A DNA stretch of 40,734 bases from a candidate division WOR-3 bacterium. Lineage in GTDB: Bacteria > Hydrothermota > Tepidihabitantia > Tepidihabitantales > Tepidihabitantaceae. This document shows positions 1-40,365 of the stretch, in pieces (position 1 is the stretch's first letter; the number at the start of each line of letters is the position of its first letter). Location: NCBI GenBank assembly GCA_039801245.1, contig JBDRUF010000005.1, positions 1 through 40,734 of the forward strand, read 5' to 3'. Below the pieces are notes generated by a model. That model was not told where the DNA came from and made no database searches. It saw only the letters and a program-made list of their open reading frames with translations. The position numbers were made by a program, and so were the translations under genes.

Positions 1-4
1 AAAT

Positions 5-85
5 CCCGGTCAGTGACCAGCCCAGGGGGCGTCCCGGGGACAGTCCCCCCTACCCTTTCCCTTATCATCCCCTTTACCCCTTACC
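5..85. repeat. Dispersed intergenic element, left copy
   Basis: An 11-bp palindrome GGTCAGTGACC (8-18) is followed by a GC-rich hairpin, GGGGAC/GTCCCC around one base (36-48), and then a pyrimidine-rich tail of CCCTT and CCCC blocks. The same order, orientation and much of the same sequence recur at 40282-40365 near the other end of the window, so this is a dispersed repeat and not chance. No coding sequence is seen in it. Its function is unknown; a hairpin-forming intergenic element is the simplest description. Confidence 0.6.
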
Positions 86-467: not shown

Positions 468-1730
468 ATGGGAATGACATTTGCTGAAAAGATATTTGCC
501 CGGAAAACGGGCAGGCAGGCGGTTAAAGCCGGTGAGATTGTTTTCTGCAAGCCGGACCGAATCTTGATGCATGATAACGCTGCAGCAATTACCGATAAGG
601 TGTTAAAGGATTTGACCGAGTTCGGGCTCGCCGACCCGGAACAGGTGGTTATTGTCCTTGACCATACGGTGCCTGCGGTTGATGAGAAGACCGCAACCGG
701 ACACAAGAGGATAAGGGAGTTTGTCCAGAAATATGGGATTAAGCGGTTCTTTGATATTGGGACTGGGGTTTGCCATCAGGTGATGGTGGAGAAGAGGCTG
801 GTTCTGCCGGGGATGGTCGTGGTTGGTTCAGACTCGCACACCTGTTCTTATGGTGCGGTGAATGCCTTTGCCACCGGTATTGACCGGACCGAGGCGGCGG
901 CTTTGCTTTTGACCGGTGAAACCTGGTTCAAGGTGCCGGAGTCAATCAGGATTTTTCTCAAGGGCAGGCTGCAGGAACTGGTCACCGCCAAGGATTTGAT
1001 TCTGACCATTATCGGCAAGATTGGGGCGGACGGGGCTGACTACTGTTCGGTGGAGTTCTGGGGTGATGTTGGACATCTGACCCTTGACGACCGTTTCACG
1101 ATTGCCAATATGGGGGTGGAGATGGGCGCAAAGAATGCGGTCTTTCCGGTTGATGAGATAACCAAGGGGTTTTTGGGTGCGATTGGTATTGAGCGGAAGG
1201 AGTGGCAGGATGTTTGGGCAGATGGTGATGCGGTCTACCGGCAGGAGTTGACATTTGAGATGGATAAGGTTGTGCCGGTGGTGGCAACACCGCACAAGGT
1301 GGATAACTGCAAGCCGGCAGGTGAGTTGAAGGATGTTGAGGTGCAGCAGTGCCTTATCGGCACCTGCACCAATGGCAGGGCATCGGACTTTGGTCTGGCA
1401 GCAGAGATAATTGGTAAGAGAAAGGTTTCACCCAAGACCAGGCTTTTGCTCCTGCCGGCTTCAAAGAGCGAACTGGAAAAGGCGCTGGATGCGGGAGATA
1501 TTCAGACACTGGTTGAGGCTGGAGGGGTGCTTTTGCCACCAGGGTGCGGACCCTGTCTTGGTGCCCATCAGGGGGTTCTGGCACCGGGTGAGCGTTGCAT
1601 CTCAACCGCCAATCGTAATTTTCGGGGCCGGATGGGCTGCAGGGATGCAGAGATTTATCTTGCCAGCCCGGCAACGGTGGCGGCAAGCGCCCTGACCGGG
1701 AGGATAACCGACCCGCGGGAGGTGATGTAA
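468..1730 (+). CDS. leuC: Aconitase-family dehydratase, large subunit (LeuC/HacA type)
   Basis: 420 residues, the usual length for the separate large subunit of 3-isopropylmalate dehydratase/homoaconitase, which isomerises a hydroxy-tricarboxylate through a [4Fe-4S] cluster. The three cluster cysteines are visible: Cys300 in GTCTNGR and Cys360/Cys363 in PPGCGPCLGAHQG. The N-terminal GSDSHTCSYGAVNAFATG block is also typical. The ATG at 468 follows a strong Shine-Dalgarno. The small subunit gene begins one base after the stop, and a citrate-lyase-like pair follows in the same operon. No leuA or leuB is present, so leucine synthesis is not the only reading: the substrate could be isopropylmalate, homocitrate, citramalate/citraconate, mesaconate or citrate. 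The family is certain; the specificity is not. Confidence 0.9.
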   Translation: MGMTFAEKIFARKTGRQAVKAGEIVFCKPDRILMHDNAAAITDKVLKDLTEFGLADPEQVVIVLDHTVPAVDEKTATGHKRIREFVQKYGIKRFFDIGTGVCHQVMVEKRLVLPGMVVVGSDSHTCSYGAVNAFATGIDRTEAAALLLTGETWFKVPESIRIFLKGRLQELVTAKDLILTIIGKIGADGADYCSVEFWGDVGHLTLDDRFTIANMGVEMGAKNAVFPVDEITKGFLGAIGIERKEWQDVWADGDAVYRQELTFEMDKVVPVVATPHKVDNCKPAGELKDVEVQQCLIGTCTNGRASDFGLAAEIIGKRKVSPKTRLLLLPASKSELEKALDAGDIQTLVEAGGVLLPPGCGPCLGAHQGVLAPGERCISTANRNFRGRMGCRDAEIYLASPATVAASALTGRITDPREVM

Positions 1731-1731
1731 G

Positions 1732-2226
1732 ATGAGGGTTTGGTTTTATGGTGATGACATTAATACCGATATGCTGTTTCCGGGTAAATACACCTACACC
1801 TGTTCCAAACCAGAGGAGATTAAGCCCCACCTCTTGGAGGACCTTGACCCGGAGTTTGCGAAAGCGGTTCAGCCCGGAGACATTATCATTGCGGGCAGAA
1901 ACTTTGGCTGCGGCTCTTCCCGGGAGCAGCCGGTTGTTGGTCTGAAGGCGGTGGGTGTGGCGGCGGTGATTGCCAAGAGTTTCGCTCGGATTTTCTATCG
2001 GGCAGGGATAAATCAGGGACTATTACTGATTGAGGCACCGGATGCGGTTGAATTTTATCAGCCGGGGATGGCGGTGGAACTGGATGCGGCAGCGGGGATT
2101 ATCAGGATTGGTGAGAGGGAGTTTTCCTTTCCCAAGCCGCCTCCGGAGATTTTAGGGATTGTTGAGGCAGGGGGGCTCTTAGAGTTTACGCGCAAAAGGT
2201 TGCGGGAAAGGGCGGTTAAAAGATGA
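1732..2226 (+). CDS. leuD: Aconitase-family dehydratase, small subunit (LeuD type)
   Basis: 164 residues, full length for the stand-alone swivel subunit that closes over the active site of the LeuC partner. The hallmark [13 protein letters not shown] block is present. The loop that sets substrate choice in archaeal and Thermus relatives follows GDDINTD; here it reads P-G-K-Y-T-Y-T, where archaeal isopropylmalate enzymes usually show YLVY and homoaconitases YLRT (from memory of the family). So the substrate cannot be assigned from this loop. The ATG starts one base after the leuC stop, and the TGA overlaps the ATG of the next gene by four bases, which suggests translational coupling of all the subunits. 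Confidence 0.9.
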
Positions 2227-3440
2227 CAGGGATTGGTGCTGCCGGTCGCAAGGGAGAAGAGGTGCGTTCTGATGTCTGGATTGGTGTTGAGATTAAGGAT
2301 TCAGGTGGAATAGAGATATCACTCAAGAGCAGGGTTGATTTTATTTACGGTGATGCGATAAAAGAGTTAATTTTATCCGGGATGAAGCATTTTGGGATTA
2401 ACGATGCCAGGGTCGAGGTTATTGATTCAGGCGCCCTGCCATTTGTGATTATGGCAAGGCTGGAAACAGCGTTAAGAAGGGCGTTGGGCAGGGATTTGCC
2501 TGAATGGCTGCCCGAGCCTGGACCTTCATTTGCCCAGCCAAGCAGCCGGGAGAGGTGGCGCCGTTCCAGGCTTTATCTCCCAGGAAACGAGCCGAGGTTT
2601 ATGTTAAACGCCCGAATCCACGAGCCCGATGGGGTGATTCTTGACCTTGAGGATTCGGTGCCACCTGAGGAGAAGGATGCGGCGCTGATTTTGGTGCGTA
2701 ACGCCCTGATAGCGGTTGATTTCGGTTTGTGTGAGCGGATGGTGCGCATCAACCCCTTGCCCGAAGGGCTAAATGAACTGGAGACATTAATCCGTGCAGG
2801 GGTGAATGTAATTCTTGTGCCCAAATCTGAGGATGATGACCAGATTGAGGAGGTGGATGAGGCGATTGGCAGGATTGTCAAGAAAACAGGTGAAAACAGG
2901 GAGGTGTTTCTGATGCCGATTGTTGAGACCGCCGCGGGATTGTTCAAGGCACATAAGGTTGCCAAGGCATCAAACCGCATCGTTGCCTTGACCTACGGGC
3001 TTGAGGATTACATTGCCGATATCGGCGCGGAGAAGACAAAGGAGGGAAGTGAGAGCCTTTTGCTCCGTTCGGTGATTGTCAATGCGGCAAGGGCAGCGGG
3101 TGTTCAGCCGATTGATACCGTTTATGCGGATGTCTTTGACCTTGATGGTCTGCGCGAAAGTTGCCAGCGGGCAAAGGAGCTGGGCTTTGAGGGCAAGGGT
3201 TGTATCCATCCCCGTCAGGTAAGGGTGATTAATGAGGTTTTTACACCGAATGATAGTGAGATTCAGAGGGCAAAGGAGATTGTTAAAGCCGACCAAGAGG
3301 CGAGAAAACATGGTAAAAGTGTGGCGGTAATTGGCTCAAAGATGATTGACCCACCAGTGGTAAGAAGGGCGCAAAGGACCCTCGAACTGGCGATTCTTGC
3401 TGGTAAACTGAATCCTAACTGGAATGAGGAGGAAGGGTGA
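2223..3440 (+). CDS. Fused citrate/citramalate lyase acyl carrier (CitD) and beta subunit (CitE)
   Basis: 405 residues in two parts. Residues 1 to about 100 match CitD, the acyl carrier protein that holds the phosphoribosyl-dephospho-CoA arm. Residues about 115-400 match CitE, the HpcH/HpaI-type lyase that cleaves the citryl-thioester, with RSRLYLPGNEPRFM, a GVILDLEDSVPPEEK metal-binding block and VILVPKSED. In Klebsiella and E. coli these are separate proteins. Aligned without gaps to E. coli CitD, as I remember it, the modified Ser14 falls on Arg15 here, and the nearest serine is Ser16. The gene overlaps leuD by four bases and citF by four. Citramalate lyase uses homologous subunits, so the substrate may be citrate or citramalate. 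Confidence 0.85.
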   Translation: MTGIGAAGRKGEEVRSDVWIGVEIKDSGGIEISLKSRVDFIYGDAIKELILSGMKHFGINDARVEVIDSGALPFVIMARLETALRRALGRDLPEWLPEPGPSFAQPSSRERWRRSRLYLPGNEPRFMLNARIHEPDGVILDLEDSVPPEEKDAALILVRNALIAVDFGLCERMVRINPLPEGLNELETLIRAGVNVILVPKSEDDDQIEEVDEAIGRIVKKTGENREVFLMPIVETAAGLFKAHKVAKASNRIVALTYGLEDYIADIGAEKTKEGSESLLLRSVIVNAARAAGVQPIDTVYADVFDLDGLRESCQRAKELGFEGKGCIHPRQVRVINEVFTPNDSEIQRAKEIVKADQEARKHGKSVAVIGSKMIDPPVVRRAQRTLELAILAGKLNPNWNEEEG

Positions 3441-4993
3441 ATTTGGTCCCGAATGCCTTAGGCAGGCTTGTCCCAACTGAAGTCAATGGCAGACCCGCGG
3501 TACCTTTTCCAGGGGTTGACCTTTTCCGTCCATCAGGCAGAAAGGCAGCACCCAAAATTCCCACCACCCTTGATTACCCTGAGGATGGCAACAAGGTTGT
3601 ACCTGACCTCCGCACCGCGCTTGAGAAGTGCGGCATCAGGGATGGGATGACCATCTCCACCCATCACCACTTCCGGGAAGGTGACACCCTGGCACTGCAA
3701 CTTTTTGACATCTGTGCGGAGATGGGGCTTAAGGATCTGGTCTGGTTTCCTTCTGCCGCCTTTCCCTGCCATGCGCCCCTGATTAAACATCTTGACAGCG
3801 GGGTGATTCATCATATTGAGGGCAGTTTGAACGGACCATTAGGTGATTATTGTACCAAGGGCAGGATGCGCGGACTTGGTGTCTTGCGCTCGCATGGGGG
3901 CAGGGCGCAGGCGATTCAGGATGGCGAGGTTCATATTGACATTGCGGTCTTGGCAGCACCGACTGCGGACTGTTTTGGCAATGCCAATGCGGTTCAAGGG
4001 GATGCGGCGTGCGGGGTGTTGGGTTATGCGCTGGCAGATGCGATTTATGCAGACAAAACCATCATCGTTACCAATAACCTTGTGCCTTTTCCCTGTATGC
4101 CGATAGAGATATCCGGGAGTTATGTTGACTATGTGGTTGTCCAGGATGTAATCGGTGACCCCAAAAAAATTGTTGCCGGCACAACCGAAATCACCCGCTC
4201 ACCCGACCGGCTTTATATTTCTGAACTGGTTGCCCGCTTTATCCGCGATTCGGGCATTATGCGCGACGGCTTCAGTTTTCAGGCGGGCGCGGGTGGGATT
4301 TCACTTGCATTTGCGGTCTACCTTGCCGAGATGATGAAGGAGGCTAATGTCAAGGCAAGCTGGATTCATGGCGGGACCAACCGCTTCTTGGTGAAGATGC
4401 TTGAAGAAGGTCTAACCAGAGCGTTAATTGACGGCCAGGCTTTTGACCTGGAGGCGGTGCGTTCAATCGGTGTAAACAGAAACCACATCGGCACCAGCCC
4501 TTTAATCAGTTACAATCACCACTCTAAGGGTAACTTCATCAACCTGTTGGATGTGGCTGTCCTTGGTGCCACCGAGGTGGATTTGAACTTTAATGCCAAT
4601 GTTGTCACCCATTCGGATGGCAGGCTTTTACACGGCATCGGTGGCTGGCAGAACTGCCTTTATGCCAAATGCGTGATTCTGGCGATGCCCGCGGTGCGGG
4701 ACCGGATTCCGGTGATTGTTGATGAGGTGACAACCCTGTGCGGACCTGGGGAGATGATTGATGTGGTGGTGACGGAACTGGGAATTGCCATCAACCCGAA
4801 GAGGCAGGATTTGCTTGCGGCGGTCAAGGGTAAGGGTCTGCCGTTAAAGAGTTTGGAGGAGATGAAGGCAGAGGTTGAGCGTCTCTGCGGCAGACCGAAA
4901 AAGCCGGAGCGGTCAAGCAAAGTTGTTGCAGTTGTCAAATGGGTTGATGGGACAGTTTTGGACTCGGTTTTCCAGATTTTAGATAAAGCGTAG
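3437..4993 (+). CDS. citF: Citrate/citramalate lyase alpha subunit (acyl-ACP transferase)
   Basis: 518 residues, the normal size for CitF, which swaps acetyl for citryl on the carrier protein before the beta subunit cleaves it. Family blocks run the whole length (THHHFREGD, GPLGDYCTKG, RSHGGRAQAI, AAPTADCFGNANAVQG, FQAGAGGISLAFAVYL). It starts with GTG at 3437, overlapping the CitDE stop, with GAGGAGG just upstream. The usual helper genes for lyase activation (citC ligase, citX and citG for the prosthetic group) are not in this window, so they must be elsewhere, be replaced, or the enzyme differs. Family assignment is firm; the substrate (citrate or citramalate) is not proven. Confidence 0.9.
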   Translation: MNLVPNALGRLVPTEVNGRPAVPFPGVDLFRPSGRKAAPKIPTTLDYPEDGNKVVPDLRTALEKCGIRDGMTISTHHHFREGDTLALQLFDICAEMGLKDLVWFPSAAFPCHAPLIKHLDSGVIHHIEGSLNGPLGDYCTKGRMRGLGVLRSHGGRAQAIQDGEVHIDIAVLAAPTADCFGNANAVQGDAACGVLGYALADAIYADKTIIVTNNLVPFPCMPIEISGSYVDYVVVQDVIGDPKKIVAGTTEITRSPDRLYISELVARFIRDSGIMRDGFSFQAGAGGISLAFAVYLAEMMKEANVKASWIHGGTNRFLVKMLEEGLTRALIDGQAFDLEAVRSIGVNRNHIGTSPLISYNHHSKGNFINLLDVAVLGATEVDLNFNANVVTHSDGRLLHGIGGWQNCLYAKCVILAMPAVRDRIPVIVDEVTTLCGPGEMIDVVVTELGIAINPKRQDLLAAVKGKGLPLKSLEEMKAEVERLCGRPKKPERSSKVVAVVKWVDGTVLDSVFQILDKA

Positions 4994-5022
4994 CCTGTTT
5001 TAACCCATCCCCATTTATTCAA

Positions 5023-5050
5023 TTGACAAGGAGGTGAGTTTCAGTATTTT
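5023..5050 (+). promoter_or_regulatory. Candidate promoter of the cstA-like gene
   Basis: TTGACA (5023-5028), 16 nt, TATTTT (5045-5050). The predicted start near 5057 leaves about 30 nt of leader with AAGGAGG (5074-5080) before the ATG at 5087. The -35 lies just past the citF stop, so the transporter can be transcribed apart from the lyase operon as well as by read-through. Confidence 0.5.
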
Positions 5051-5086
5051 AAAATTCGTGATTTTTATTCACAAGGAGGATAGTCA

Positions 5087-6802
5087 ATGGCATTTTTAAT
5101 ATTTGTCCTGGCTGTTGTTTGGTTTTTCCTGATGTATCGGATTTACGGCGGGTTTCTGTCCAGGCGGGTTTTTAAACTTGATGATTCCCGGCAGACACCG
5201 GCACACACCTTGAGGGATGACCGTGATTATGTGCCGAGCAACCGCTGGGTTGTCTGGGGTCATAACTTCACCTCCATTGCCGGTCTTGGTCCGATTGTCG
5301 GTCCTGCGATTGGTGTCATCTGGGGCTGGGTGCCAGCCCTGCTCTGGATAACATTGGGAACGGTTTTCTTTGGCGGGGTTCACGATTTTTCCTCGCTGGT
5401 TCTGTCAATCAGAAACAAGGGGCTTTCCATCGGTGAAATCACCACCCGGGTAATCGGCAAGAGGGCAAAGTTTCTTTTTATGGCGATAATCTTCCTTGAG
5501 GTCTGGGTGGTTATTGCCATCTTTGCAATGATTATGGGGATTCTTTTCAAGATGTATCCCAGTTCGGTTTTCCCGGTCTGGATGGAGATACCGATTGCAC
5601 TGACTCTGTCCTATATGGTTTTCAAGAAGGGTAAAAGCCTGGAACTTTGGTCCTGGATTGCACTCCTGGCGATGTATGCCACCGTGGCTTTGGGTGTTTT
5701 GATTCCCTTGAGTATTCCCGGCAGCAATGCGGTTGTCATCTGGATTGTGATTCTGATGGTCTATGCCTATGTTGCCTCAATTTTGCCGGTGGAAACCCTC
5801 CTGCAGCCAAGGGATTACATCAACTCCCATGAGTTGATGGTTGCCGGGCTCTTGATTTTTGCCGGCGCGGTTGCCGCCTTCATCCGCGACCCTGGTCATC
5901 TTGGCTTTGTTGCCCCTGCCTTCAATCTCTCTGCAAGGGGTGCACCACCGGTCTGGCCATTTCTTTTTGTTACGATTGCCTGCGGTGCCATCTCCGGTTT
6001 CCATTCCCTGGTTACCTCAGGCACCGCATCTAAACAGATTAACAAAGAGAGTGATGCCCGATTGGTCGGTTATGGCGGAATGATTGCTGAGGGCATTCTT
6101 GCTACCTTGGTTTTACTTGCGGTTGGCGCCGGTTTCGGTGCTATCGGTAAAGGATTGGAAGCGGGTATGGCGGCCTGGTCACAACATTATTCAGACTGGT
6201 CTTCAGCAAGCGGGATGGCGGCAAATCTCAAGGCTTTTGTTACCGGTGCATCAAATATGATGGGTTATATCTTTGGCAATGGCAGATATGTCCGCGAACT
6301 GATGATGACGATAATGGGTGTTTTTATCGTTTCCTTTGCCGGCACCACGATTGACACCGCAGCAAGAATCCAGCGTTATATTGTTCAGGAGTTTGGCAGG
6401 AGTGCGGGCTTGAATTTTATCACCGGCAAGCATATTGCGACCTTGATTGCGGTTGGTTCGGCGTTTGGTCTGGCAATGGTCAAGCCTGGTGGTCAGGGTG
6501 CGTTAATCCTCTGGCCGCTCTTTGGCACTATCAATCAGCTCCTTGCCGGTCTCGCTTTGGTTGTTGTTACCCTTTATCTGACATTCAAAAAGTCAAAGCC
6601 ATTGGTGGCAGCGATTCCAACACTCTTTCTCGTTGTAATGACCTCCTGGGCGATGGTGAAAAACATCCAGGATTATGCCCGCACTCACAACTGGCTTTTG
6701 TTCAGCGTTGGCTGGATTGTTTTTGCCTTAATGGTCTGGCTGGTGATTGAGGCGATAATTGCGCTCATTAAGGGTTTCAAGACCAAGCCTCATCTTGATT
6801 GA
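5087..6802 (+). CDS. cstA: CstA-family carbon starvation protein, probable pyruvate or peptide transporter
   Basis: 571 residues with many hydrophobic segments through the whole length, and the CstA signature near the N-terminus (YGGFLSRRVFKLDD, then NRWVVWGHNFTSIAGLGPIVGPAIG, here split across residues about 50-75). It is shorter than E. coli CstA (about 700 residues) but within the range of shorter family members. E. coli CstA and BtsT import pyruvate, and CstA has also been linked to peptide uptake. The position after a citrate/citramalate-lyase operon makes a small carboxylate such as pyruvate attractive, but that is inference. A strong ribosome site, AAGGAGG, precedes the ATG. Confidence 0.85.
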   Translation: MAFLIFVLAVVWFFLMYRIYGGFLSRRVFKLDDSRQTPAHTLRDDRDYVPSNRWVVWGHNFTSIAGLGPIVGPAIGVIWGWVPALLWITLGTVFFGGVHDFSSLVLSIRNKGLSIGEITTRVIGKRAKFLFMAIIFLEVWVVIAIFAMIMGILFKMYPSSVFPVWMEIPIALTLSYMVFKKGKSLELWSWIALLAMYATVALGVLIPLSIPGSNAVVIWIVILMVYAYVASILPVETLLQPRDYINSHELMVAGLLIFAGAVAAFIRDPGHLGFVAPAFNLSARGAPPVWPFLFVTIACGAISGFHSLVTSGTASKQINKESDARLVGYGGMIAEGILATLVLLAVGAGFGAIGKGLEAGMAAWSQHYSDWSSASGMAANLKAFVTGASNMMGYIFGNGRYVRELMMTIMGVFIVSFAGTTIDTAARIQRYIVQEFGRSAGLNFITGKHIATLIAVGSAFGLAMVKPGGQGALILWPLFGTINQLLAGLALVVVTLYLTFKKSKPLVAAIPTLFLVVMTSWAMVKNIQDYARTHNWLLFSVGWIVFALMVWLVIEAIIALIKGFKTKPHLD

Positions 6803-6811
6803 ATGAAACCC

Positions 6812-6839
6812 TTGACTCGCACCGAGGCGGACTTAAGAT
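6812..6839 (+). promoter_or_regulatory. Leaderless promoter of the small barrel gene
   Basis: TTGACT (6812-6817), 16 nt, TAAGAT (6834-6839). The ATG at 6847 lies seven bases after the -10, where transcription should begin, so the mRNA is expected to start at or next to the start codon. No Shine-Dalgarno precedes that ATG, which agrees. The same hexamer pair with the same spacing recurs at 11091-11118. Confidence 0.7.
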
Positions 6840-6846
6840 AAATTGT

Positions 6847-7350
6847 ATGAAAAATAAAAAGGGGTTCGCTCCCAGCACAATCGCCGGTGTTGCTTTTTGC
6901 ACCCTCGCACTCCTGTTCGGATTTTGCGCACAGGCTTTTGCTGAAGGCAGCGGTTTGGGACTCGGTATCATCCTTGGTGAACCGACCGGAGTGAGCGCAA
7001 AGTTGTGGCTGAGTGGGTCAGTGGCAGTTGATGCTGCTGCCGGCTGGGCATTTCTTAATCGCCATAACCACTATAATTACATTCATCTGCACGGTGATAT
7101 CCTTCACCACTATTTTCTGCCGGTGCCTATAGGTGACCTGCCATTGTATTACGGGATTGGCGCACGGGTCAGGCTGGCGTCAGATGAGGAAAAGATGCGT
7201 GTCGGGGTGAGGGTTCCTGTTGGGCTTGAGTATCTTTTTGAGCCGGTGCCCTTGGGCTGTTTCTTGGAACTGGTGCCACTGCTTGATTTGATTCCGGAAA
7301 CTCGATTCGGGGTAAATGGTGGTTTAGGTATTCGCTACTACTTCCGCTAA
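6847..7350 (+). CDS. Small secreted protein, probable outer-membrane beta-barrel
   Basis: 167 residues. A Sec signal peptide is clear: a basic KNKK start, a hydrophobic stretch, and a likely cut after AQAFA. The mature part is rich in alternating hydrophobic strands and glycine (GLGIILGEPTGVSAKLWL, later GVNGGLGIRYYFR) and ends in an aromatic-basic residue pair, as many small barrels do. I chose the ATG at 6847 over an in-frame TTG at 6799 because only the former gives a proper signal peptide and sits at the predicted transcription start. No enzyme motif is seen. It converges on eamA with a seven-base gap. Function unknown. Confidence 0.7.
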   Translation: MKNKKGFAPSTIAGVAFCTLALLFGFCAQAFAEGSGLGLGIILGEPTGVSAKLWLSGSVAVDAAAGWAFLNRHNHYNYIHLHGDILHHYFLPVPIGDLPLYYGIGARVRLASDEEKMRVGVRVPVGLEYLFEPVPLGCFLELVPLLDLIPETRFGVNGGLGIRYYFR

Positions 7351-7357
7351 TTTTATC

Positions 7358-8254
7358 TTAGCCGATAAAGACCAAAAGCGCACCGGTAAAGGCGCTGATT
7401 ATCGCAATTGCGCGCCGGAAATTGACCGGCTCCTTGAGAATCAGCGCGGAAAGGATAAAAATGAAGATATTGCTCAACTGGTTCAGGGGTGCCGCAACCG
7501 AAACTAAAGTGAACTTCATCCCACCAAGCCAGATGGTCAAAGCGATATAGGTGCCAAGAACGGTTCCACCGATAGCGTAACCAAGACCCTTTTTGATAAA
7601 GGCAGAGGCAAGAACCCTTTTGCGCTCGGGCAAAATCAGGATAAAGAAAAAGACGCCCATCAAGCCGGCAAGGAGGCGAAATGCGGTCGCCCATAGGAGC
7701 GATGTTTGGGCAAGGAGCGGTTTAATCAAGATGATACTAACTGCGGTTGCTAAGGTTGACAGAACGCCAAGGATGATGCCGATAAAAAGCGTTTTCCGAG
7801 GGATGTTTTGCGGCACCCTTATCTGGCTGGTCAAAAACAGGGCGAAAAGGATAAGGGCTATCCCCAGAATCTGGAGCGGGGTCAGGCTCTCTTTCAGGAA
7901 AATAAGGGAAAGGGAGATGAGTAAAGGGCTGTACATATAGCCAACAATCGCAGAAAGACCGGCACCGATTCGGTTCAGGCTCATAAAGAAGAGGGTATCA
8001 CCAACCGCCATTCCGAGGATGCCGCTTGCAAAAAACCGGGCGAATTCACAAAAACGCATTCGGGGTATTAAGGGCTCTTTGAGGATTAAAAGCGTCGGGA
8101 TGAAAAGGATGAGCGCGAGGAGGTTTTTGAAGAGGTTCAGCCCGAGCGGGTGCGCGGTTTCGCCGCTCTTTTTGAAGAGGATAACGGCAAAAGCCCAGAA
8201 AAGGGCGCAGAGGAGGGCAAGGGTCTCGCCGAAAAAGGGGAAATTGACCGGCAC
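7358..8254 (-). CDS. EamA/DMT-family inner-membrane transporter
   Basis: 298 residues with about ten membrane segments arranged as two EamA repeats (about 10-140 and 155-297), the layout of drug/metabolite exporters. Each half ends in the typical LKEPxxxxxxxGxxLI-like helix (LKESLTPLQILGIALI and LKEPVNFRRAIAIIS). The substrate cannot be told from sequence. Translation starts at GTG 8254; its core promoter ends six bases before, so the message should be leaderless. The promoter and first codons exist as a second, broken copy at 9283-9401, on the far side of a two-gene cassette. Confidence 0.85.
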   Translation of the reverse strand: MPVNFPFFGETLALLCALFWAFAVILFKKSGETAHPLGLNLFKNLLALILFIPTLLILKEPLIPRMRFCEFARFFASGILGMAVGDTLFFMSLNRIGAGLSAIVGYMYSPLLISLSLIFLKESLTPLQILGIALILFALFLTSQIRVPQNIPRKTLFIGIILGVLSTLATAVSIILIKPLLAQTSLLWATAFRLLAGLMGVFFFILILPERKRVLASAFIKKGLGYAIGGTVLGTYIALTIWLGGMKFTLVSVAAPLNQLSNIFIFILSALILKEPVNFRRAIAIISAFTGALLVFIG

Positions 8255-8290
8255 CGCTCAATTATCAGCACCCTGAAAGAGGAGTCAAGA
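8165..8290. repeat. Direct repeat copy A: eamA promoter and first 30 codons
   Basis: This stretch covers the intact eamA promoter, start codon and first 30 or so codons. It is repeated in the same orientation at 9283-9401 with about nine in ten bases identical by eye and a few single-base indels. Between the copies lie only the nucleotidyltransferase and regulator genes. Homology stops abruptly on both sides of each copy. Confidence 0.85.
8261..8288 (-). promoter_or_regulatory. Leaderless promoter of eamA
   Basis: On the minus strand: TTGACT (8288-8283), 16 nt, GATAAT (8266-8261). Six bases follow, then the GTG start at 8254, so transcription should begin on the start codon. A second copy with the same boxes and spacing sits at 9371-9398. 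Confidence 0.65.
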
Positions 8291-8298
8291 TAGTAGGA

Positions 8299-8856
8299 CT
8301 ATTTACTTTTTAATCGGCGTTGGCGGAGAAGGGCGCGGTAAAATTCTCGGTATCGTTCTGCCATCCCTTCTGCCTCTGCCCATCTTCTAACCTCACGAAT
8401 GTTCACCTTTTGGTTGGTAGCGACCAAAATTGCCTGCTCCAGTCCCTGGCGGTCGTTAAAAAAGAAGAAATGGGCGAGCCGGTCCTTGACACAATCGGTA
8501 GGAGAAAGCAGGGTCAGTTGATAACCACCTGTGATGATGCGCTGCGGCTGTCTTATCGGTTCACCGCCAATAGCAGGTGGTGGCGGGCGGATGTCAATAA
8601 TTGTCTCTTCTTTCGGGTTGGTAAATGCGCCTGAGACCTTCGGATTGGAGTGATAGCCAAGTTCAGCAAGGGCGCTGGCGATGATTTTTTCCGGGTAACT
8701 GGCGGCGAGGACGAAATCAAGGTCACGGGTGACATATTTCCCTCGGGCGTAGATGGTTACGCAGGAACCACCAGAAAGCACCGTGTCAATTCCATAGGCT
8801 TTCAGTTTTGTGGAAATGCGGGCAGCAAGGCGCAGGATTTTAACGGCTCGGGACAT
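8299..8856 (-). CDS. Minimal nucleotidyltransferase, AbiEii/toxin-like
   Basis: 185 residues. The nucleotidyltransferase fold signature is present: Gly29-Gly30-Ser31, then Asp45-x-Asp47 (RDLDF), with a third acidic strand at Asp88 (IIDIRPP). These are the metal-binding residues of the Pol-beta superfamily. Size and pairing with a small winged-helix regulator resemble type IV/AbiE or MNT-type toxin-antitoxin pairs, where the transferase modifies tRNA or a partner protein. The ATG overlaps the end of the regulator gene by 17 bases, so the two are co-translated. The C-terminus is very basic (LLRQRRLKSK). A housekeeping role cannot be excluded; the AbiE/TA reading is inference from context. Confidence 0.7.
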   Translation of the reverse strand: MSRAVKILRLAARISTKLKAYGIDTVLSGGSCVTIYARGKYVTRDLDFVLAASYPEKIIASALAELGYHSNPKVSGAFTNPKEETIIDIRPPPPAIGGEPIRQPQRIITGGYQLTLLSPTDCVKDRLAHFFFFNDRQGLEQAILVATNQKVNIREVRRWAEAEGMAERYREFYRALLRQRRLKSK

Positions 8857-9220
8857 ACCTTACTGGTTTGCCTGGGATTCGGGGACGAAGACGGGGAATA
8901 TAGTAGCGTTCCCTTTCTTTCGCTGGCAAGAGTTCCAGCACCTTTTTCAAAAGGGCTTCAAGTTCCCGGCGAAAGGGGTAGCGGGGGTTAAGGTAGAACA
9001 GCCTGATTTTACCCCGGCGCCGGCTGTAAACAACACCATAATCCTCAAGGGTTTTCAGCTGTCGCTGAACCGCCCGCAGGGCAGCGTTTGTTTCTTCAGC
9101 GATTTCCCGGGGATATGCGGCATCGCGGGTAAAGAGGATGAGCAGTATCCACTCGCGCAGCGGCGAGCCCAAAAGTGGCTTCAGTAATGCCGAGCGGTTT
9201 TGACTACATTTTTTAGTCAT
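8840..9220 (-). CDS. Winged-helix transcription regulator, candidate antitoxin
   Basis: 126 residues from the ATG at 9220. Residues about 10-85 form a winged helix: SPLREWILLILF, then YPREIAEETNAALRAVQRQL as the recognition helices and VVYSRRRGKIRLFYLNPRYP as the wing. It is followed by a basic tail. An upstream in-frame ATG at 9241 lies inside the -10 box of the gene's own promoter, so the second ATG is more likely the real start. Two 21-bp operator-like repeats overlap the promoter and first codons, which points to autoregulation. It forms an overlapping pair with the nucleotidyltransferase. I cannot name a family with certainty; ArsR/MarR-like or AbiEi-like are candidates. Confidence 0.75.
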   Translation of the reverse strand: MTKKCSQNRSALLKPLLGSPLREWILLILFTRDAAYPREIAEETNAALRAVQRQLKTLEDYGVVYSRRRGKIRLFYLNPRYPFRRELEALLKKVLELLPAKERERYYIPRLRPRIPGKPVRYVPSR

Positions 9221-9241
9221 ATGACTACATTTTGCAGTCAT
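9200..9241. promoter_or_regulatory. Tandem 21-bp operator of the winged-helix gene
   Basis: Two adjacent 21-bp units (9221-9241 and 9200-9220) differ at only three positions. Each is an inverted repeat: TGACT and AGTCA arms around a TACATTTTN core. Together they cover the -10 box, the predicted transcription start and the first codons of the regulator. This is the expected place for an autorepressor site bound by two dimers. If the ATG at 9241 were used, the repeat would also encode a seven-residue peptide repeat, MTAKCSH then MTKKCSQ. Confidence 0.7.
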
Positions 9242-9267
9242 TATAATAGATAGTTTTGTTTAATCAA
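9240..9267 (-). promoter_or_regulatory. Promoter of the regulator/nucleotidyltransferase pair
   Basis: On the minus strand: TTGATT (9267-9262), 16 nt, a perfect TATAAT (9245-9240). Transcription should start near 9233, downstream of the ATG at 9241 and about 12 nt before the ATG at 9220. It lies between the tandem operator and the broken eamA copy. Confidence 0.7.
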
Positions 9268-9282
9268 GCCCTGCTCTTTTTT

Positions 9283-9364
9283 CAAGAGAATAACGGCAAA
9301 GGCCCAGAAAAGGGCGCAGAGCAGGGCAAGGGTCTCGCCGAAAAAGGGGAAAATAAACCGGCAC
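9283..9364 (-). pseudogene. Truncated, frameshifted 5' fragment of eamA
   Basis: From the GTG at 9364 the reading begins like EamA (M-P-V) but one extra base after about four codons shifts the frame, and homology ends after about 27 codons. In the shifted frame it stays open for roughly 33 codons and stops at the -35 region of the regulator promoter. It is most simply a dead copy of the transporter's start. Confidence 0.7.
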
Positions 9365-9370
9365 CGCTCA

Positions 9371-9398
9371 ATTATCAGCATCGGGCTGAAAGAGTCAA
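9371..9398 (-). promoter_or_regulatory. Second copy of the eamA promoter
   Basis: TTGACT (9398-9393), 16 nt, GATAAT (9376-9371) on the minus strand, identical boxes to the promoter at 8261-8288. If active it drives transcription through the eamA fragment into the regulator/nucleotidyltransferase pair. Confidence 0.55.
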
Positions 9399-9433
9399 GA
9401 GAGACGGCTAATTGTCAATCGTTATTTTCTCAC

Positions 9434-9478
9434 TTGACAGGGCGAGATGAATGAATATCATAAATGTGATGTATGATA
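9434..9478 (+). promoter_or_regulatory. Promoter and overlapping operator of the PKD lipoprotein gene
   Basis: TTGACA (9434-9439), 16 nt, TATCAT (9456-9461). A perfect inverted repeat, TATCATA (9456-9462) and TATGATA (9472-9478) with nine bases between, starts in the -10 box and runs past the predicted transcription start near 9468. That is a classic repressor position. The in-frame ATG at 9451 lies upstream of the start of transcription, so it is not used. Confidence 0.6.
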
Positions 9479-9549
9479 AGGGTACAGATAACCATGGCAT
9501 AAAAAGAAACCAAGTAATATTTAGCTGTTCTCAAGGAGGTGAATCATAT

Positions 9550-10215
9550 ATGAAATGTTGGATTAAAATAATCCTTACGGTTTTTATCTTCTTGAGCTGT
9601 AAGCATCCTCTTGGAATTAATCATCCTCCAGTAATTAACTCTATTTCTGGTGCCGATTATGTTGGTGTTAACGGCTCAATCACTTTAACTTGCTATGCCA
9701 GTGACCCTGATAACGACCCGCTTGACTACAACTGGACTTGCACAAACGGGACGTTTTCATCTTCTTCCGGTCAGACAATTACATGGTATGCTCCTTCTGC
9801 TTCGGGTAGCGCAACTGTTACGGTCACAGTTACTGATGGGCGCGGTGGCTCTGACACACGAAGCAAAACGATAACTGTCCAACGCGTCACTACCACACTG
9901 ATAGATTGGGATGGGCAAATTTTAGCAGGCTATTATATTTATTGGACTCAGGATTTGGCATCGGGGTATACAGTATCCGGTAACTTCTGGGTTGACAATT
10001 ATGACATCAACTTTCTGATTCTGGATGCCGCTAACTATGAGAACTGGCGAAATAATCGGTCCTACAATTATGTAGTAAGGGTTTTGCGTTCTTCCGGTTC
10101 ATCTTTTTCTGCAACGATAACAACAAGCGGTACCTACTACATTATCTTGGACAACACCTTCAGCCTGTTTACTGATAAATTCGCCCACCTTTTCTTGGAG
10201 AAAACTTCACCATAG
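9550..10215 (+). CDS. Secreted lipoprotein with a PKD/Ig-like domain
   Basis: 221 residues. The signal peptide ends in a lipobox FLSC with Cys17 as the lipidated residue. Residues about 25-115 form a PKD/Ig-like sandwich (ASDPDNDPLDYNWTC, VTVTVTDGRGGSDTRSKTITV). The rest is a second beta-rich region ending GTYYIILDNTFS, which resembles the close of bacterial pre-peptidase C-terminal domains, followed by a short odd tail. I start at 9550 because AAGGAGGTG (9533-9541) sits at the right distance and only this start gives a signal peptide. The gene is visibly richer in A+T than the operons around it, which suggests recent arrival. It probably sits on the cell surface. Confidence 0.75.
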   Translation: MKCWIKIILTVFIFLSCKHPLGINHPPVINSISGADYVGVNGSITLTCYASDPDNDPLDYNWTCTNGTFSSSSGQTITWYAPSASGSATVTVTVTDGRGGSDTRSKTITVQRVTTTLIDWDGQILAGYYIYWTQDLASGYTVSGNFWVDNYDINFLILDAANYENWRNNRSYNYVVRVLRSSGSSFSATITTSGTYYIILDNTFSLFTDKFAHLFLEKTSP

Positions 10216-10304
10216 GGACTAAAGGCGTATGTGACCAAAGGCGCGTCTCTCTCCAAGAGATTGATATTTGAGCTGATTGTATCAATGATGAGTTGGGGAA
10301 CAAC

Positions 10305-10733
10305 ATGCCTATCGGGAAGTTACGTTTCACCCTAAACCCATTGGGTGCAGTTAGAGGACTGGTTGAGAAGTGGCGCCCTCCTTTTTATAAGTCCGAATCT
10401 GAATACAAAAAGGACCTCTACAACTATCTGGTCAAGAATGTCAAAGGTATCGAGGTAGTCCGCGAGTTTGGTAGTAGCCGTTTGCGAGCCGACATCTGCG
10501 TGGGAAGAAAGGTATTCATTGAGATAAAGAAGGACTTGAATTCCACTTCTAAACTGCAACGCCTGCTCGGACAATTAGAGCTCTACGCAAAGGAAGGTTG
10601 GGATAACGGAATTCTTGTGGTCGTAGGGAAAGTTGAGCCAGACCTTCTGAGGCAAGCAGAGGAAGGACTTGAGCGATTTGAAGATGATTTTTCCTTTTTC
10701 ACTGACGAAGGATGGATAATAATTCGCAAATAA
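10305..10733 (+). CDS. PD-(D/E)XK nuclease-like protein
   Basis: 142 residues from ATG 10305; in-frame TTG 10293 is an alternative. The middle reads VREFGSSRLRADICVG then KVFIEIKKDL, which fits the PD-(D/E)XK core: Asp in RADICV, then E-x-K in IEIKK, with a following helix QRLLGQLELYA in the usual place. Such small folds occur in restriction enzymes, Holliday-junction resolvases and standalone DNA-damage or defence proteins. The C-terminus continues with an alternating strand/helix region. No methylase or helicase partner is adjacent. The exact role is unknown. Confidence 0.65.
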   Translation: MPIGKLRFTLNPLGAVRGLVEKWRPPFYKSESEYKKDLYNYLVKNVKGIEVVREFGSSRLRADICVGRKVFIEIKKDLNSTSKLQRLLGQLELYAKEGWDNGILVVVGKVEPDLLRQAEEGLERFEDDFSFFTDEGWIIIRK

Positions 10734-10781
10734 ATGGAAATGGGGAATTTAACGAGCCTCGCTTTATGCCGCTAATGAATA

Positions 10782-10819
10782 GAGGGATTTCTCTGCTTCG
10801 GTCGAAATGACACTTGCGG
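10782..10819 (+). repeat. Dispersed GGGATTTCTC hairpin repeat, copy 1
   Basis: GAGGGATTTCTC, a CTTCGGTCG centre, then AAATGAC. The same block, inverted in orientation, occurs at 22063-22110, where the centre forms a clean TCCAC/GTGGA hairpin. This is an intergenic repeat of unknown function. Confidence 0.5.
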
Positions 10820-11060
10820 TAATTTAAGGGTTCGTTAAGTTCTAAGTATACATATAAGTATACTAAATATCAGGGGTTGTTTTGGGGTTAAGTTTCGTAG
10901 TTTCATAATTTAGGGAAAATCCAGTTTTAGTTGGGGGGTGACTCCCCCGGTGGTTTTGGTTCTGGTGTTTTTATCCGGCTTTTCGGTCGCAATCCTTGCA
11001 GTTTTTAAGGGTCTGTTAAGTGTGATAACAAAAGGACCAAGGAGCGGAAACTGAGGCTTT
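10820..11060. other. Gene-free region with several small repeats
   Basis: No gene is supportable between 10734 and 11128. It contains a perfect inverted repeat AGTATAC/GTATACT with a six-base loop (10845-10864), two near-identical blocks AAGGGT-YY-GTTAAGT about 180 bp apart (about 10827 and 11008), a GC-rich hairpin (10933-10953) and the start of a TTCGGTC micro-repeat before the next promoter. Confidence 0.5.
10933..10953 (+). repeat. GC-rich hairpin repeat, copy 1
   Basis: GGGGG-TGACT-CCCCC followed by GGTGG. A copy with one base changed in the centre lies at 31026-31045 in the same orientation. Neither is followed by a T-run, so neither is a typical terminator. Confidence 0.55.
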
Positions 11061-11090
11061 CGTCTTCGGTCTTCCGACTTCGGTCTTGCC
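11061..11090 (+). repeat. TTCGGTC micro-repeat upstream of the PKD lipoprotein operon
   Basis: Repeated heptamer-like units, GTCTTCGGTCTTCC then GACTTCGGTCTTGCC, lie just before the -35 box at 11091. Related units occur inside coding sequence at 11876-11928, 19168-19190 and 23533-23552. Confidence 0.5.
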
Positions 11091-11118
11091 TTGACTTGGC
11101 AAGGGTTTCTTTTAAGAT
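11085..11118 (+). promoter_or_regulatory. Near-leaderless promoter with an inverted repeat around the -35 box
   Basis: TTGACT (11091-11096), 16 nt, TAAGAT (11113-11118). The ATG at 11129 lies ten bases after the -10, so the leader is at most a few bases. A perfect inverted repeat, CTTGCC (11085-11090) and GGCAAG (11098-11103), is centred on the -35 box and may be a binding site. Confidence 0.65.
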
Positions 11119-11128
11119 TTAAGGGTTG

Positions 11129-40233: not shown

Positions 40234-40281
40234 GCAAGGGTCTAAGATTTATACACAAAACTCCAGAAAATCTGCCTAAAT

Positions 40282-40365
40282 TCCGGTCAGTGACCACCAT
40301 AGGGGTCATCCTGGGGATGGTCCCCTCCACCCTCCCCGTTGCCGTTTTACCCCTACTTTCCCAAT
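40282..40365. repeat. Dispersed intergenic element, right copy
   Basis: CCGGTCAGTGACC (40283-40295), then GGGGTCATCC, then a GGGGA-TGG-TCCCC hairpin (40313-40325) and a pyrimidine-rich tail. It matches the left copy at 5-85 in order and orientation. Confidence 0.6.

What the first reader, a model, noticed from the sequence alone, without database searches (positions are those of the whole stretch)
8165..9401. Two-gene cassette bounded by duplicated eamA promoter and 5' end
Seen: about 120 bp covering the eamA promoter, start codon and first codons is present twice in direct orientation. The only genes between are a winged-helix regulator and a nucleotidyltransferase. The inner copy is intact and continues into eamA; the outer copy is frameshifted and ends. 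This looks like insertion of a toxin-antitoxin or AbiE-like cassette that brought or created a promoter-bearing duplicate of its target, keeping the host gene expressed. No transposase or integrase is present. The structure could be a new way for such pairs to integrate without polar damage.
Basis: partly seen in the sequence, partly recalled or inferred. Interest (0 to 1): 0.75.

Follow-up and report, generated by a model that had tools for sequence, protein, structure and literature searches.

The report
Toxin-like gene pair flanked by duplication
A small self-regulated gene pair that looks like a toxin and its controller sits between two copies of the start of a neighbouring transporter gene, as if it had inserted there and duplicated its landing site, a way of moving known for restriction enzymes but not, in the papers searched here, for this kind of pair.

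Summary
About 140 bp (eamA promoter, start codon, about 29 codons) occurs twice in direct orientation: 8165-8304 joined to intact eamA, and 9273-9413, frameshifted and truncated (86% over 145 columns). Between lie only a winged-helix gene and a nucleotidyltransferase (NTase) gene with their own promoter and operator. Two congeners have one eamA 5' end and no pair. The two copies resemble each other (82%) far more than the congeners (58-68%), so the duplication is lineage-specific.

The pair belongs to a widespread two-gene family, without a dedicated model in the libraries tried (wHTH directly upstream of NTase in 80/80 loci, many phyla). It is probably an autoregulated toxin-antitoxin-like module: the NTase fold resembles MenT1, but AbiE membership fails. 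Direct repeats close to both ends recur in 12/78 loci versus 7/472 control gene blocks; half of these are Anaerolineales repeat arrays.

Best reading: insertion with a long (~130 bp) target duplication, a mode known for restriction-modification genes, here with an NTase pair. Weak points: the right flank is a chromosomal rearrangement breakpoint, no same-species empty site is available, and toxicity and mobility are untested.

The parts
8165..8304 (-). Inner repeat copy: eamA promoter, GTG start and first ~29 codons, continuous with eamA
9273..9413 (-). Outer repeat copy: same promoter and 5' codons, one extra base after the GTG, truncated
8261..8288 (-). Promoter of eamA (TTGACT-16-GATAAT); GTG lies 6 nt downstream of the -10 (leaderless by position). 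Same 16-bp spacing in both congeners
9371..9398 (-). Duplicated promoter in the outer copy (TTGACT-16-GATAAT), upstream of the pair; spacing kept despite two 3-nt indels
9240..9267 (-). Own promoter of the pair (TTGATT-16-TATAAT)
9201..9241 (-). Putative operator: two dyads GACTgcaaaATGTAGTC / GACTaaaaaATGTAGTC overlapping the -10 and start codons; similar arrays upstream of wHTH in relatives
8840..9241 (-). Winged-helix protein (133 aa; alternative start ATG at 9220), ArsR/SmtB-like fold, conserved RPRxxGKP tail; inferred repressor and antitoxin
8299..8856 (-). Nucleotidyltransferase (185 aa), pol-beta fold, motif GG-x14-DLD; inferred toxin
7358..8254 (-). eamA host gene (298 aa), intact

Best explanation
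A compact, self-regulated wHTH-NTase module (about 0.97 kb, from own promoter to stop codon) inserted at the 5' end of eamA and left a direct duplication of about 130-145 bp of its target. The promoter-bearing inner copy keeps eamA intact; the outer copy is a decaying remnant that may still supply a second promoter to the module. This is the pattern called insertion with long target duplication. The module most likely works as a toxin-antitoxin-like pair: the NTase modifies a cellular target (by analogy with MenT, an RNA such as tRNA), and the wHTH protein restrains it and represses the operon through the operator over its start. Shown: repeat, gene content, single-copy state in congeners, lineage-specific duplication, conserved pairing, operator-like dyads, NTase motif and predicted fold. 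Inferred: the insertion mechanism, use of the outer promoter, toxicity, neutralisation, the substrate.
For: Repeat and boundaries: the module abuts the repeats within ~30 bp at one end and at the NTase stop codon at the other. Congeners G001 and G002 have the same gene order up to eamA, one promoter copy with the same 16-bp spacing, and no pair. Copies 82% identical to each other versus 58-68% to congeners. Pair present in 4 of the 18 family genomes examined (G000, G005, G006, G017), absent from congeners; relatives found on plasmids. wHTH directly upstream of NTase in 80/80 loci, mostly overlapping or within 17 nt. Operator dyads: perfect 8-bp dyads in 27% of upstream regions versus 2% shuffled. 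NTase G29 G30 D45 D47 invariant in 60 sequences; model pLDDT 96.7, PDB fold matches to ANT(2'') and MenT1. Repeats close to both module ends in 12/78 loci versus 7/472 control blocks. L113: herA 3' end repeated around a Phd/PIN pair and around this pair. Known precedent for RM genes, about 100 bp and tied to rearrangements (PMC3874152; PMC3031569).
Against: No same-species empty site; congeners are about 65% identical at eamA protein level. The sequence right of the outer copy does not match what lies upstream of eamA in congeners; their upstream genes are on other contigs and the right-hand block is ~75 kb away in G001. So a rearrangement happened here too, and the original upstream flank is unknown. 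Six of the 12 loci with close-set repeats are Anaerolineales contigs rich in repeats; without them it is 6/72 (one of them the window itself) versus 4/374. A clean empty site was not obtained for the Microbulbifer case. No functional data.
Confidence: 0.52

Rival explanations
1. Rearrangement scar: a chromosomal rearrangement at this spot made a short duplication of the eamA 5' end, and the pair arrived separately or was carried on the incoming segment; the duplication is not a product of the pair's own insertion.
For: The outer copy sits at a synteny breakpoint between two blocks that are 75 kb apart in G001; about 2.8 kb between the blocks (8294-11126) is absent from the matching places in congeners.
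Against: The repeats fit the module's ends closely; close-set repeats recur at other members in other phyla. RM insertions are themselves linked to rearrangements, so the two readings overlap (PMC3874152).
Confidence: 0.28
2. Homologous (Campbell-type) integration: a circular or linear DNA carrying the pair plus a piece of an eamA 5' region recombined once with the chromosomal eamA.
For: Gives exactly direct repeats flanking the insert with one intact gene; relatives of the pair occur on plasmids.
Against: Needs a donor already carrying an eamA fragment; none was found. The pairs in the related genomes G005, G006 and G017 do not lie next to eamA.
Confidence: 0.12
3. A transposon or integron cassette whose recombinase is lost or acts in trans.
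For: Repeats flank some other members in arrays or palindromic contexts (L133, L113, L097).
Against: No transposase or integrase among the ORFs around the site, no terminal inverted repeats found at the insert ends, and the repeat is eamA sequence, not an attC-like hairpin.
Confidence: 0.06
4. Not a toxin pair: the NTase is an ordinary small-molecule adenylyltransferase (ANT or LnuA like) with its own ArsR-type regulator. This rival concerns the function only and is compatible with any insertion route.
For: The best fold matches are ANT(2'') enzymes; the wHTH matches ArsR/SmtB sensors.
Against: Invariant pairing with overlapping genes, patchy and plasmid distribution, neighbourhoods with other TA-like pairs in some loci, MenT1 among the top fold matches.
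Confidence: 0.25

Closest known systems
Insertion with long target duplication of restriction-modification genes (Nobusato et al. 2000; Furuta et al. 2010, as cited in PMC3031569 and PMC3874152)
   Same: Compact addictive-type gene pair without recombinase; direct target repeats in the order of 100 bp; single copy at the unoccupied site; association with rearrangements
   Different: Cargo is a wHTH-NTase pair, not an RM system; the duplication includes the host promoter and leaves the host gene intact; no strain-level empty site here
AbiE type IV toxin-antitoxin (AbiEi/AbiEii)
   Same: Bicistronic wHTH regulator plus pol-beta NTase; dyads upstream of the operon
   Different: Regulator is ~110-130 aa and lacks the AbiEi C-terminal domain; NTase is ~180 aa without visible KLxAaxxR and +DxxD motifs; only marginal AbiEii matches (1 of 60 in Pfam at E<0.01)
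MenAT1 of Mycobacterium tuberculosis
   Same: Small (~185 aa) NTase with the closest toxin fold in the PDB (8an5/8an4)
   Different: MenA1 is a 68-aa helical antitoxin, not a wHTH; sequence identity 17-18%
PDC-M05 (PADLOC candidate: NTase plus HEPN)
   Same: The wHTH matches PDC-M05A models in 30/30 members
   Different: No HEPN gene was found next to the window pair; here the wHTH and NTase are separate genes (one ORF in L109)

Membership tests
Insertion with long target duplication | Insert flanked by direct repeats in the order of 100 bp | tested here: met
   ~140 bp, 86-88%
Insertion with long target duplication | Related genome has one copy of the repeat and no insert | tested here: inconclusive
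   One eamA 5' end and no pair in G001 and G002, but their upstream flank differs from the window's
Insertion with long target duplication | No transposase or integrase, no terminal inverted repeats | tested here: met
AbiE (type IV TA) | Toxin matches AbiEii/DUF1814 with motifs I-IV | tested here: not met
   Motifs I/II of pol-beta present; KLxAaxxR and +DxxD not seen in the alignment consensus (motif definitions); Pfam AbiEii in 1 of 60
AbiE (type IV TA) | Antitoxin with wHTH plus C-terminal domain | tested here: not met
   Family median ~110 aa, wHTH and a short tail only
AbiE (type IV TA) | Toxicity and neutralisation | not testable with these tools
   needs expression tests
Toxin-antitoxin module (general) | Two small overlapping genes, operator upstream, patchy and mobile | tested here: met
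   (autoregulation itself is inferred from the dyads)
Toxin-antitoxin module (general) | One gene toxic, the other protective | not testable with these tools
   needs expression tests
PDC-M05 | NTase accompanied by HEPN protein | tested here: not met
   No HEPN next to the window pair; NTase neighbours are wHTH and eamA; definition from PMC12988326

The most novel reading that the evidence does not exclude
Compact toxin-antitoxin-like operons, of this wHTH-NTase family and of others, move on their own without any recombinase, each insertion duplicating about 30-350 bp of the end of a host gene so that the host gene stays intact. The eamA 5' duplication here and the herA 3' ends around two different pairs in L113 would be two examples.
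Probability: 0.25. Interest if true: 0.75.

Novelty: new variant of a known kind. Interest (0 to 1): 0.5.

Why it matters
How chromosomal toxin-antitoxin modules get into genomes without mobile-element genes is largely unexplained. A minimal pair sitting between copies of its target's promoter and 5' codons, in one lineage but not its congeners, gives a testable case of self-contained insertion that spares the host gene, and points to a common mode shared with restriction-modification systems. The pair itself is a widespread two-gene family across many phyla that the libraries used here do not name.

Tried and rejected
Single-protein scan of genome contigs found nothing; the alignment scan worked. 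[quoted passage not shown] The repeat is not an assembly artefact (copies differ) and not chance (E 1e-37 to 1e-39). GC and GC3 do not mark the pair as foreign. Integron attC considered: the window repeat is eamA sequence and not hairpin-like, unlike L133 and L113. The first, looser repeat count (17/80) was replaced by gene-block controls; the distance thresholds were chosen after seeing the focal repeats, and control blocks and loci are not independent, so its p-value is nominal. No paper combining long target duplication with toxin-antitoxin insertion was found in the searches made; Nobusato 2000 and Furuta 2010 themselves are not held and are known here only through citing papers.

Full report
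Observation. The window is from a candidate division WOR-3 type genome (the nearest homologue of its NTase in named records is WOR-3). A direct repeat of about 140 bp is present at 8165-8304 and 9273-9413: 86% over 145 columns, E 2e-37; the strong core gives 88%, E 1e-39, and is the only repeat of that size inside the window. Read on the - strand it carries a sigma-70-like promoter TTGACT-16-GATAAT, then a GTG start 6 nt after the -10, then about 29 codons of eamA. The inner copy runs on into a complete EamA-family transporter. The outer copy has one extra base after the GTG and ends at about codon 29. Two compensating 3-nt indels in the promoter spacer leave the 16-bp spacing intact in both copies, which hints that the outer promoter is still used; this is inference.

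What lies between. From the outer copy inwards: a promoter TTGATT-16-TATAAT (9267-9240), two tandem dyads of the form GACT...AGTC covering the -10 and possible start codons (9241-9201), a winged-helix gene (8840-9241) and an NTase gene (8299-8856) that overlap by 17 nt, and then, from the NTase stop codon, the inner repeat. So the insert is little more than one operon.

Empty sites. Two genomes of the same genus (G001, G002) keep the gene order 468-8254 of the window, have one eamA with the same promoter spacing, and lack the pair. The inner and outer copies are 82% identical over the compared stretch, and 58-68% to the congeners: the duplication arose in this lineage. However, the congeners' genes upstream of eamA lie on other contigs of this genome, and the block right of the island (from 11126) lies about 75 kb from eamA in G001. 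The duplicated segment therefore sits at a rearrangement breakpoint, and the exact pre-insertion flank is unknown.

The pair. With an alignment of three relatives, 121 related stretches were found in public genomes and 80 kept, in many phyla. In 80/80 loci the wHTH gene lies directly upstream of the NTase gene; most overlap by 4 nt or are 0-17 nt apart; in L109 they are one ORF. In the family of the window only 4 of 18 genomes have it. Relatives occur on plasmids of Bdellovibrio, Sulfurimonas, Sulfurospirillum and Leptospira; of the three looked at, a wHTH-sized gene is adjacent in all, annotated as winged helix in two. The gene tree mixes phyla in part (Thermodesulfobacteriota needs at least 3 changes on starred branches), compatible with transfer but not proof. 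The NTase has invariant G29, G30, D45, D47; its model (pLDDT 96.7) matches ANT(2'') and MenT1/MenT3. The wHTH resembles ArsR/SmtB regulators and has a nearly invariant basic tail RPRxxGKP, which may contact the NTase (inference). Upstream regions are enriched in dyads: perfect 8-bp dyads in 27% versus 2% of shuffles; two or more TGACY/RGTCA half-sites in 38% versus 5%. Pfam, NCBIfam and PADLOC have no dedicated model: only weak DUF2204, DUF6036 or AbiEii hits for the NTase, and PDC-M05A (an NTase of an NTase-HEPN candidate system, PMC12988326) for the wHTH.

Is the flanking duplication recurrent? Any direct repeat of at least 70% identity across the pair occurs in 18/78 loci versus 34/472 control gene blocks of similar length from the same contigs. 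Repeats within 170 bp of the wHTH and 60 bp of the NTase stop occur in 12/78 versus 7/472 (nominal Fisher p 7e-7; thresholds set after seeing the focal cases). Half of the 12 are Anaerolineales/Chloroflexi contigs where DUF559 gene 3' ends or other repeats are abundant (L079, L082, L084, L095, L102, L103); without these it is 6/72, the window included, versus 4/374. Two further cases are telling but individual. In L113 the 3' end of a herA-like gene occurs after herA, between a Phd/PIN pair and the wHTH-NTase pair, and again after the latter, the last two with the same terminator-like hairpin. In L132 a decayed part of an MBL-fold exonuclease gene lies across the pair from the intact gene. Recurrence is thus supported but mixed in nature.

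Interpretation. The anatomy fits insertion with long target duplication, described for restriction-modification genes with duplications in the order of 100 bp and links to rearrangements (PMC3874152; PMC3031569; PMC1643837). The module most likely acts as a TA-like pair in which the NTase is the toxin and the wHTH both represses and neutralises it, as in AbiE, where an autoregulating wHTH antitoxin is paired with an NTase toxin (PMC3985639). It is not a member of AbiE by the features tested. The main rivals are a rearrangement scar unrelated to the pair's own insertion, single-crossover integration of a DNA carrying an eamA fragment, and, for the function, a small-molecule adenylyltransferase with its regulator.

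Noticed in passing
L113:1190-3700: 3' end of a herA-like gene occurs three times, separating a Phd/PIN pair and the wHTH-NTase pair; the last two copies share a terminator-like hairpin. Two different TA modules may have inserted at the same gene end.
   Followed up: partly
L079 (also L084, L095, L102, L103): Anaerolineales arrays in which several small TA-like gene pairs (HEPN/MNT-like, two copies of the wHTH gene, others) alternate with about ten copies of a DUF559 gene 3' end at ~1 kb spacing.
   Followed up: partly
window 8294-11126: About 2.8 kb lineage-specific island at a synteny breakpoint between blocks that are ~75 kb apart in G001.
   Followed up: partly
window 10293-10733: 146-aa ORF in the island without Pfam match; a D...E-I-K-K pattern suggests a PD-(D/E)XK nuclease-like fold (by eye).
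   Followed up: no
L109:4626-5522: wHTH and NTase lie in one continuous ORF (fusion).
   Followed up: no
G005:C12:24905-25648 (L034, L091): NTase gene of a related WOR-3 genome is split by ~190 bp of inserted sequence.
   Followed up: no
L132:4126-4569 and 3261-4093: Decayed partial copy of an MBL-fold exonuclease gene opposite the pair, next to an MNT/HEPN-like pair in Microbulbifer donghaiensis.
   Followed up: partly
L057:3-552 and 1959-2506: 550-bp repeat, 100% identical, containing part of a LytTR-type gene (by eye), flanks the pair; one copy is at the contig edge, so assembly effects are possible.
   Followed up: no
window 8254-8270: eamA start codon lies 6 nt after the -10 element in the window and at a similar distance in G001 and G002, so the mRNA is probably leaderless.
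   Followed up: partly
window 1-56 and 40278-40333: Short direct repeat (80% over 56 bp) between the two ends of the window.
   Followed up: no
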